Shown here: positions 2,129-2,703 of the stretch, in pieces
Position numbering within the stretch: the stretch's first letter is position 1
How the letters are laid out: each line of letters begins with the position of its first letter
Assembly (NCBI RefSeq): GCF_026914185.1
Contig: NC_070569.1
Span: 3,286,001 to 3,350,000, forward strand
Length of the DNA stretch: 64,000 bases
Direction of reading: 5' to 3'
From: Puccinia triticina
Taxonomy: Eukaryota; Basidiomycota; Pucciniomycetes; Pucciniales; Pucciniaceae
Notes under the pieces: model-generated
Seen by the model: only the letters and a program-made list of their open reading frames with translations
What the model was told of the DNA's origin: nothing
The model's database searches: none
Program-made: the position numbers and the translations under genes

Positions 2129-2374
2129 TGTGAAACTCCATAAAATAATATGAGTCCTATGGGAGTTGAACCCATGTCTCTTATATCCATGTCAAGTGTA
2201 CTAACCACTGTACTAAGGACGCTTGGATATTGATAGCTGCAGGTGGGTCAATGAACATCCACTGGTGTCACATGAAGATCCCTAATTGAGGGGAAGACCC
2301 GTAAATGACAGGTCATGAATGAGTGACACCAGCAGGTATGATAAAGCTAAGAGTAGCAGAACCACAACCTGACA
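2129..2374 (-). repeat. TRIM 3' LTR (element on minus strand)
   Basis: A 246-bp repeat starting TGTGAAACTCC and ending ACCTGACA on the plus strand, preceded by the target duplication GCATC. It is about 98.8% identical to the copy at 2458-2703, which suggests a recent insertion. The differences are two adjacent bases near 2231 and one near 2345. All lie outside the tRNA-like part. Confidence 0.93.
2152..2222 (-). tRNA. tRNA-like sequence in LTR (copy 1)
   Basis: A 71-nt minus-strand sequence folds as a tRNA. The acceptor arm is GCGTCCT/AGGACTC with 6 of 7 pairs. The D arm is GTAC/GTAC around AGTGGTTA, with A box TAGTACAGTGG. The T arm is ATGGG/CCCAT around TTCAACT, with B box GGTTCAACTCC. The anticodon arm is weak (CTTGA/ATAAG, loop CATGGAT), and the base at position 33 is A instead of the near-universal T. 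No anticodon can therefore be assigned safely. It may be a decayed tRNA kept for its Pol III promoter boxes rather than a working tRNA. Confidence 0.65.
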
Positions 2375-2439
2375 GCCCCCCGTGCTATGAAAGGGGTTTA
2401 TCATACCAAGACTCCATAATATCCTAGGTATCACGCGGT
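2375..2439 (-). other. TRIM internal region, non-coding
   Basis: The rest of the 83-bp internal segment. Nothing coding is visible. On the element strand it ends in a G-rich tract next to the 3' LTR, which would serve as the polypurine tract. Confidence 0.7.
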
Positions 2440-2457
2440 AGCGCTGGGCTCATAACC
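2440..2457 (-). promoter_or_regulatory. Primer-binding site of the TRIM (half tRNA-iMet type)
   Basis: Plus-strand GCGCTGGGCTCATAACC ends exactly at the LTR boundary. It matches the 5' side of the anticodon arm of initiator tRNA-Met (CAT anticodon). The complement on the element strand is therefore a primer site for an internally cleaved tRNA, as in copia elements. The local copia element has the same 11-nt core next to its own 5' LTR. Confidence 0.8.
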
Positions 2458-2703
2458 TGTGAAACTCCATAAAATAATATGAGTCCTATGGGAGTTGAAC
2501 CCATGTCTCTTATATCCATGTCAAGTGTACTAACCACTGTACTAAGGACGCTTGGATATGAATAGCTGCAGGTGGGTCAATGAACATCCACTGGTGTCAC
2601 ATGAAGATCCCTAATTGAGGGGAAGACCCGTAAATGACAGGTCATGAATGAGTGACACCAGCAGGTATGATAAATCTAAGAGTAGCAGAACCACAACCTG
2701 ACA
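2458..2703 (-). repeat. TRIM 5' LTR (element on minus strand)
   Basis: Second 246-bp LTR copy, followed by the target duplication GCATC at 2704-2708. On the minus strand its inner end at 2458 abuts the primer-binding site, which makes it the 5' LTR. Confidence 0.93.
2481..2551 (-). tRNA. tRNA-like sequence in LTR (copy 2)
   Basis: Identical to the sequence at 2152-2222, in the other LTR of the same TRIM. The same A and B boxes and the same weak anticodon arm are present. Both copies point in the element's own direction. Confidence 0.65.

What the first reader, a model, noticed from the sequence alone, without database searches (positions are those of the whole stretch)
2129..2703. A TRIM retrotransposon whose LTRs each carry a tRNA-like Pol III promoter sequence
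Seen directly: 246-bp LTRs, 83-bp interior, perfect 5-bp target duplication, copia-type primer site, and in each LTR a 71-nt cloverleaf-like sequence with good A and B boxes in the element's own orientation. Known parallel: plant Cassandra TRIMs carry 5S rRNA in their LTRs. A tRNA-derived counterpart in a fungus would be a new type or at least a little-known one. Inference: the Pol III boxes could drive element RNA independently of a Pol II promoter.
Basis: partly seen in the sequence, partly recalled or inferred. Interest (0 to 1): 0.9.

Follow-up and report, generated by a model that had tools for sequence, protein, structure and literature searches.

The report
tRNA-bearing mini-retrotransposon that hybridises with Copia
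This is a tiny rust-fungus jumping element of a type described in 2024, whose ends carry a tRNA-like stretch; several of its genomic copies are spliced to larger jumping elements, which hints at whose machinery it borrows.

Summary
In detail: two 246-bp LTRs, an 83-bp interior, a perfect TSD (GCATC) and a tRNA-like block in each LTR. It is a family: a B-arm pattern of the LTR occurs at 150 places in the genome, and 15 of 18 two-LTR copies, window copy included, have perfect TSDs. It is not a new type. Kojima 2024 (PMC10886601) named such elements Helenus, with 113 families in rusts; this one is probably Helenus-5_PTrit.

What I did not find in the papers searched is a set of hybrids. Of 41 copies of the TRIM interior, 7 follow a foreign LTR that ends at the primer-binding site: 6 Copia-type, 1 from another Helenus. 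One is [Copia LTR - TRIM interior - TRIM LTR] inside one TSD. Three are unlike Copia bodies between nearly identical TRIM LTRs, each inside a TSD. The joints fit plus-strand transfer between co-packaged cDNAs sharing a tRNA-iMet PBS, and point to the helpers. Pol III transcription stays inferred: boxes and a TTTT after the tRNA are present, but there is no excess conservation and no stable cloverleaf.

The parts
2124..2128 (.). target-site duplication GCATC, one side
2129..2374 (-). 3' LTR of the element (246 bp)
2142..2145 (-). TTTT downstream of the tRNA-like block (candidate Pol III terminator), 3' LTR
2151..2222 (-). tRNA-like block in the 3' LTR (B box 2162-2172, A box 2205-2215)
2375..2386 (-). 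polypurine tract AGCACGGGGGGC, identical over 12 bases to that of the ordinary CopiaA element
2375..2457 (-). 83-bp interior, non-coding
2441..2457 (-). primer-binding site GGTTATGAGCCCAGCGC, complementary to the anticodon arm of initiator tRNA-Met
2458..2703 (-). 5' LTR of the element (246 bp)
2471..2474 (-). TTTT downstream of the tRNA-like block, 5' LTR
2480..2551 (-). tRNA-like block in the 5' LTR (B box 2491-2501, A box 2534-2544)
2704..2708 (.). target-site duplication GCATC, other side

Best explanation
The element is a Helenus-type TRIM: a 575-bp non-coding LTR retrotransposon whose LTR holds a decayed tRNA kept as a Pol III promoter. Its RNA is packaged and copied by Copia elements whose PBS pairs with the same part of initiator tRNA-Met. 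Step 1 (inferred): Pol III, and perhaps also Pol II, makes the RNA; partial read-through of the TTTT in the 5' LTR and stopping at the TTTT in the 3' LTR would give the short repeat that reverse transcription needs. Step 2 (inferred, with hybrids as the trace): TRIM RNA and Copia RNA enter the same particle. Step 3 (products shown, process inferred): plus-strand strong-stop DNA (LTR+PBS) of one cDNA lands on the PBS of the other. One switch gives [Copia LTR-PBS-TRIM interior-TRIM LTR] or [TRIM LTR-PBS-Copia body]; two switches give [TRIM LTR-PBS-gag-pol-PPT-Copia LTR-PBS-TRIM interior-TRIM LTR]; TRIM with TRIM gives tandem arrays. Step 4 (shown for four hybrids): the hybrid lies inside a 5-bp TSD as one insertion. 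The helpers are thus several families of one Copia group whose own LTRs show no tRNA to ARAGORN. CopiaA, whose PPT equals the TRIM's over 12 bases, is the first candidate for the source of the TRIM's signals, though only one base sets it apart from the PPT of the L040 body.
For: Family and TSDs. tRNA-like block. Known kind. Hybrids: L036, L038 and L040 have TRIM LTRs at both ends within TSDs TCTAG, TCTGA, TTATT and the whole 83-bp TRIM interior at 100% after a foreign LTR; their bodies are about 64-77% alike in aligned DNA stretches and L038 and L040 are 50-57% like the L036 protein. L037 is AACCT-[563-bp Copia LTR]-[PBS+TRIM interior]-[TRIM LTR]-AACCT. L075 has the same order; what precedes it matches none of the Copia loci held, and its TRIM LTR is cut short. 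L041 joins a second Helenus LTR (210 of 215 bases as in L045) to this TRIM. L042 joins a CopiaA-like LTR to it. L043 is TRIM LTR + PBS + Copia body. Tandem arrays: L010, L018, L020. The hybrid TRIM LTRs of L036, L038 and L043 are identical to three different sets of plain copies. Ordinary CopiaA: C4:2405348-2410813, TSD TCTTC, 535-bp LTRs, same PBS context as L036, PPT as in the TRIM, no tRNA. L036 frame: copia gag, integrase, RVT_2.
Against: No transcript, Pol III occupancy or cDNA data were available. Boxes are not more conserved than the rest of the LTR (P 0.23), though the copies are young. The tRNA-like RNA does not fold better than shuffles. Scarcity of T-runs alone is not unusual (at most one T4 per unit in 50% and 78% of shuffles). 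The tRNA blocks of the two Helenus families align no better than shuffled sequence (46 of 72 bases, shuffles up to 46), and the second one's B box departs from the consensus at two bases. TSDs could not be shown for 3 of the 7 hybrids (L041, L042, L075) or for L043. The last bases of the L036 Copia LTR read CACA where the ordinary copy reads CTCA; a transfer exactly at the PBS would not bring in the TRIM's ending, so this is a variant or a joint a few bases upstream. The PPT link to CopiaA is thin: the L040 body has 11 of the 12 bases. Helpers other than CopiaA were not traced to ordinary copies.
Confidence: 0.8

Rival explanations
1. The hybrids arose by DNA recombination: a Copia circle with one LTR recombined with an integrated TRIM or its cDNA at the shared PBS, or LTRs were swapped by gene conversion.
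For: Composites L036, L038 and L040 would look the same, since a resident TRIM would already have its TSD. The joint in L036 may lie a few bases upstream of the PBS.
Against: Only 15-16 bases are shared at the PBS, very short for homologous recombination. L037 has mismatched LTRs in one TSD, which circle integration into a resident TRIM does not give, because that would leave the TRIM's own 5' LTR in place.
Confidence: 0.15
2. The tRNA-like block is a passive relic; Pol II transcribes the TRIM as in ordinary LTR elements.
For: No excess conservation of the boxes, no stable fold, no expression data. Hybrids with Copia bodies would need Pol II.
Against: Two Helenus families with LTRs that blastn does not align (LTR against LTR best E 0.5) both have a tRNA-like block near the LTR end, each followed by the unit's only T4 run. 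Kojima reports box conservation across families.
Confidence: 0.25
3. An autonomous Copia family with tRNA-bearing LTRs exists, and the TRIM is its deletion derivative.
For: L036 has two identical tRNA-bearing LTRs, a TSD and an unbroken 1430-aa gag-pol frame.
Against: Three unlike bodies sit in nearly identical LTRs (1-3 of 246 differences between elements; bodies). Each still carries its own Copia LTR inside. The ordinary CopiaA has another LTR. The L036 body's own LTR occurs once at 100% in this genome, the next matches being 91-94% (33 of 33 candidates scored).
Confidence: 0.07
4. The blocks are functional tRNA-Pro genes that spread on the LTR.
For: ARAGORN calls tRNA-Pro(TGG) in 71 of 75 ungapped LTRs.
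Against: Mismatches in the acceptor and anticodon arms, A instead of U at position 33, and an MFE structure that is no cloverleaf. Kojima regards tRNA function as unlikely for most Helenus families.
Confidence: 0.02

Closest known systems
Helenus (Kojima 2024, PMC10886601), probably family Helenus-5_PTrit
   Same: TRIM with tRNA-like LTR, 5-bp TSD, PBS for the anticodon loop of tRNA-iMet, rust genome; Table 2 gives Helenus-5_PTrit 123 of 128 tRNA-Pro-TGG predictions in P. triticina, and ARAGORN calls tRNA-Pro TGG here
   Different: Hybrids with Copia were not mentioned in the parts I read (supplements not seen); Kojima inferred helpers from PBS likeness and from one shared interior.
Cassandra (plant TRIM with 5S rRNA in LTRs)
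   Same: small RNA gene sequence in each LTR, tandem LTR-interior-LTR arrays (PMC7215508, passages)
   Different: tRNA rather than 5S rRNA; fungus; helper traceable here, unknown for Cassandra according to Kojima
Template-switch complex elements of Triticeae (Sabot and Schulman 2007, PMC1950507)
   Same: three-LTR complexes inside one TSD with like outer LTRs, taken as reverse-transcription products (part 1 of 2 read)
   Different: there the two partners are of one family and the switch uses R homology; here the partners have unlike LTRs and share only the PBS
SMART and other TRIMs mobilised by Copia
   Same: short, non-coding, Copia helper (as told in PMC10886601)
   Different: no Pol III promoter sequence in the LTR is mentioned there

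Membership tests
TRIM | under 1 kb, two LTRs, PBS and PPT, no coding capacity | tested here: met
   575 bp; PBS and PPT at the ends of an 83-bp interior
TRIM | family of dispersed copies with TSDs | tested here: met
   15 of 18 two-LTR copies with perfect 5-bp TSD, the other 3 with one mismatch
Helenus | tRNA-derived sequence in the LTR with boxes A and B | tested here: met
   RF00005 50.1 bits; ARAGORN; boxes present
Helenus | fungal Helenus: 5-bp TSD and Copia-type PBS | tested here: met
Helenus | sequence identity to a named Repbase family (Helenus-5_PTrit) | not testable with these tools
   Repbase not held; only tRNA type and rough copy number agree
TRIMp3 | transcription by RNA polymerase III | not testable with these tools
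   no RNA data; sequence signals only
Helenus | helper LTRs not shared with the TRIM (Kojima's expectation) | tested here: inconclusive
   ordinary CopiaA has unrelated LTRs, but three Copia bodies sit between TRIM LTRs
template-switch complex element | one TSD around the complex, outer LTRs alike, inner third LTR | tested here: met
   L036, L038, L040
functional tRNA gene | intact cloverleaf with U33 and matching arms | tested here: not met

The most novel reading that the evidence does not exclude
Pol III-type TRIM LTRs are repeatedly put onto whole Copia bodies by PBS-mediated cDNA switching, and such composites, at least one with two identical tRNA-bearing LTRs and an unbroken gag-pol frame, can act as mobile units of their own. 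That would mean TRIM LTRs work as exchangeable promoter modules and that an autonomous element can carry a tRNA-type LTR, against the expectation in print.
Probability: 0.12. Interest if true: 0.75.

Novelty: new member of a known kind. Interest (0 to 1): 0.5.

Why it matters
Kojima 2024 states that it is not known how a TRIM's dependence on its autonomous partner is maintained, and that there is no indication of Cassandra's helper. Here the hybrids leave a physical record of which Copia families were copied together with the TRIM: one PBS group and, by an 80% rule on the LTRs, at least four families. That makes helper choice testable by counting joints in any long-read genome, and suggests that the shared tRNA-iMet PBS, not LTR likeness, is what counts. 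It also warns annotators that hybrids can be taken for autonomous elements with tRNA LTRs; that such LTRs inflate tRNA counts in rusts is Kojima's point.

Tried and rejected
Excess conservation of boxes A and B within the family: not found (4 of 22 box columns variable against 67 of 246 overall, P 0.23; whole tRNA block 20 of 72, P 0.61). Cloverleaf stability: not found. Origin from one host tRNA: 20 of the 57 places listed were fetched; the alignments gave no clear parent, and some of the 20 may be other Helenus copies. First tRNA-iMet pattern: 0 places; a looser one gave 10 places, reversed control 1, of which 5 look like tRNA-iMet. Truncated copies L035, L039 and L077 were first suspected as hybrids and dropped. 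TSD search for L041 and L042: none found in the held sequence. Copy of the L043 body at C3:4860819: cut off at the PBS by other sequence, so its own LTR was not seen. The shuffled control for LTR identities said nothing (it aligned 1-9 columns). 'An autonomous Copia family with the same LTR' was my reading after and was dropped. L053 has no TSD and L058 only a 16-base piece of the interior; neither is explained. Cross-species comparison was not possible: this genome has no relatives in the tool. The viral, metagenome and prokaryote genome collections were not searched.

Full report
What is there. The window holds a 575-bp element on the minus strand: LTRs 2458-2703 (5') and 2129-2374 (3'), 3 differences in 246 bases, an 83-bp interior and TSD GCATC. 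It splits a Ty3/Gypsy-like element, with an RVT_1 frame on one side and a zinc-knuckle frame on the other. Each LTR has a 72-base tRNA-like block that ARAGORN calls tRNA-Pro(TGG) and Rfam scores at 50.1 bits.

Family. In the window's genome (122.8 Mb, 18 contigs) a search with the whole element gave 46 matches (40 of 145 candidates scored) and with the LTR 55 matches (40 of 152 candidates scored). A 20-base B-arm pattern with up to 2 mismatches occurs at 150 places, its reversed control at 1 (100 places were printed). In one search I read 53 loci (L009-L061): 33 had a perfect 5-bp TSD around the outer full LTRs. The other 20 were truncated, had one mismatch, were hybrids whose outer end is not this LTR, or (L053, L058) are unexplained. 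Of 18 two-LTR single copies, window included, 15 are perfect and 3 have one mismatch. The 83-bp interior was found 40 times (40 of 42 candidates scored), plus L042.

Known kind. [quoted passage not shown] I read its abstract, results (part 1 of 2, and passages of part 2), discussion, and tables and legends; not the supplements. Its Table 2 assigns 123 of 128 tRNA-Pro-TGG predictions of P. triticina to Helenus-5_PTrit. The tRNA call and the rough copy number fit, so this is probably that family, but I had no Repbase sequence. In the protein search the 16 listed relatives of the L036 gag-pol (7986 candidates scored) include named P. striiformis proteins at 56-58% identity; two unnamed ones reach 65-66%. 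That the genome is P. triticina is inference.

The hybrids. Comparing the TRIM with its partners gave a result I did not find in print in the open-access papers searched. Of 41 interiors, 31 follow the TRIM's LTR, 7 follow a foreign LTR that ends at the PBS, and 3 are truncated (L035, L039, L077). The foreign LTRs are Copia-type in L036, L037, L038, L040, L042 and L075 and a second Helenus in L041. The six Copia-type ones are 67-81% alike in aligned columns. On the other side, the TRIM's 5' LTR runs at the PBS into a Copia body in L036, L038, L040 and L043.

Why this points to reverse transcription. L037 is flanked by AACCT on both sides, yet its 5' LTR is a 563-bp Copia LTR and its 3' LTR is the TRIM's. 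Mismatched LTRs inside one TSD mean that the hybrid existed before integration. The partners share only about 15-16 bases at the PBS, the place where plus-strand strong-stop DNA changes template (established retroelement biology, recalled). One such switch gives L037 and L075, or in the other direction L043. Two switches give L036, L038 and L040, which use up exactly one Copia and one TRIM genome. TRIM with TRIM gives L010, L018 and L020; L010 lacks the first 9 bases of its outer LTR and has no TSD, L018 has a nested insertion, and L018 and L020 have TSDs. Sabot and Schulman 2007 (PMC1950507, part 1 of 2 read) used the same diagnostics for same-family complexes in cereals; Cassandra arrays are in PMC7215508 (passages). 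L041, L042, L043 and L075 have no demonstrable TSD pair. The TRIM LTRs of L036, L038 and L043 are identical to plain copies; those of L040, L041 and L037 are 1-2 bases and that of L042 is 9 bases from the nearest, so L042 is probably older.

The helper. An ordinary CopiaA copy (C4:2405348-2410813) has 535-bp LTRs in which ARAGORN finds no tRNA, TSD TCTTC, the PBS context of L036, and the PPT AGCACGGGGGGC, 12 of 12 bases as in the TRIM; L040 has 11 of the 12. L036, whose own CopiaA LTR is 91-94% like its nearest matches, has an unbroken frame with copia gag, integrase and RVT_2 domains. The frames of L038 and L040 are broken.

Pol III. In this family and in the second Helenus (L045, TSD AGTGG, LTRs of 215 bp that blastn does not align with this LTR), the only sense-strand T-run of 4 or more per unit lies within 15 bases after the tRNA block. 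In dinucleotide shuffles that arrangement occurs in 1.8% and 1.4%. I chose the test after seeing the sequence, so the joint figure of about 3 in 10,000 is a guide only, and having at most one T4 run is by itself common (50% and 78% of shuffles). TTTT is intact in 74 of 75 ungapped LTRs, 18 other matches having been left out. Against: no excess conservation of the boxes, no stable fold, and the tRNA blocks of the two families are no more alike than shuffled sequence. My reading is that the block survives as a promoter, not as a tRNA.

Verdict. Observation confirmed; the type is known; the Pol III step is likely but unproven; the hybrids are the part worth following.

Noticed in passing
L045:214-850 (minus): Complete copy of a second Helenus family: 215-bp LTRs with their own tRNA-like block, 207-bp interior, PBS GGTTATGAGCCCAGAGC, TSD AGTGG.
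   Followed up: partly
window 788-4127 (-): Ty3/Gypsy-like element (RVT_1 frame and zinc-knuckle frame) interrupted by the TRIM.
   Followed up: partly
window 25971-27969 (-) and 31244-32257 (-): Pieces of Copia pol (RVT_2, SH3_retrovirus) and a copia-type gag (below Pfam's cut-off) with zinc knuckle.
   Followed up: no
window 37852-39832 (+): Two overlapping long frames without a Pfam match; the text TGTPGIGKTFF looks like a P-loop ATPase.
   Followed up: no
window 62006-63079 (-): Frame with a CCCH zinc finger behind a low-complexity repeat; it may be an exon of a U2AF-small-subunit-like gene (name recalled).
   Followed up: no
L050 and L051 (C5:6640668 and C5:6593711): Two solo LTRs with nearly the same flanks, so probably one insertion duplicated with its surroundings.
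   Followed up: no
L053 (C4:3601315-3601560): LTR of this family directly preceded by TCACA and without a TSD, with CopiaA-like LTR matches nearby.
   Followed up: no
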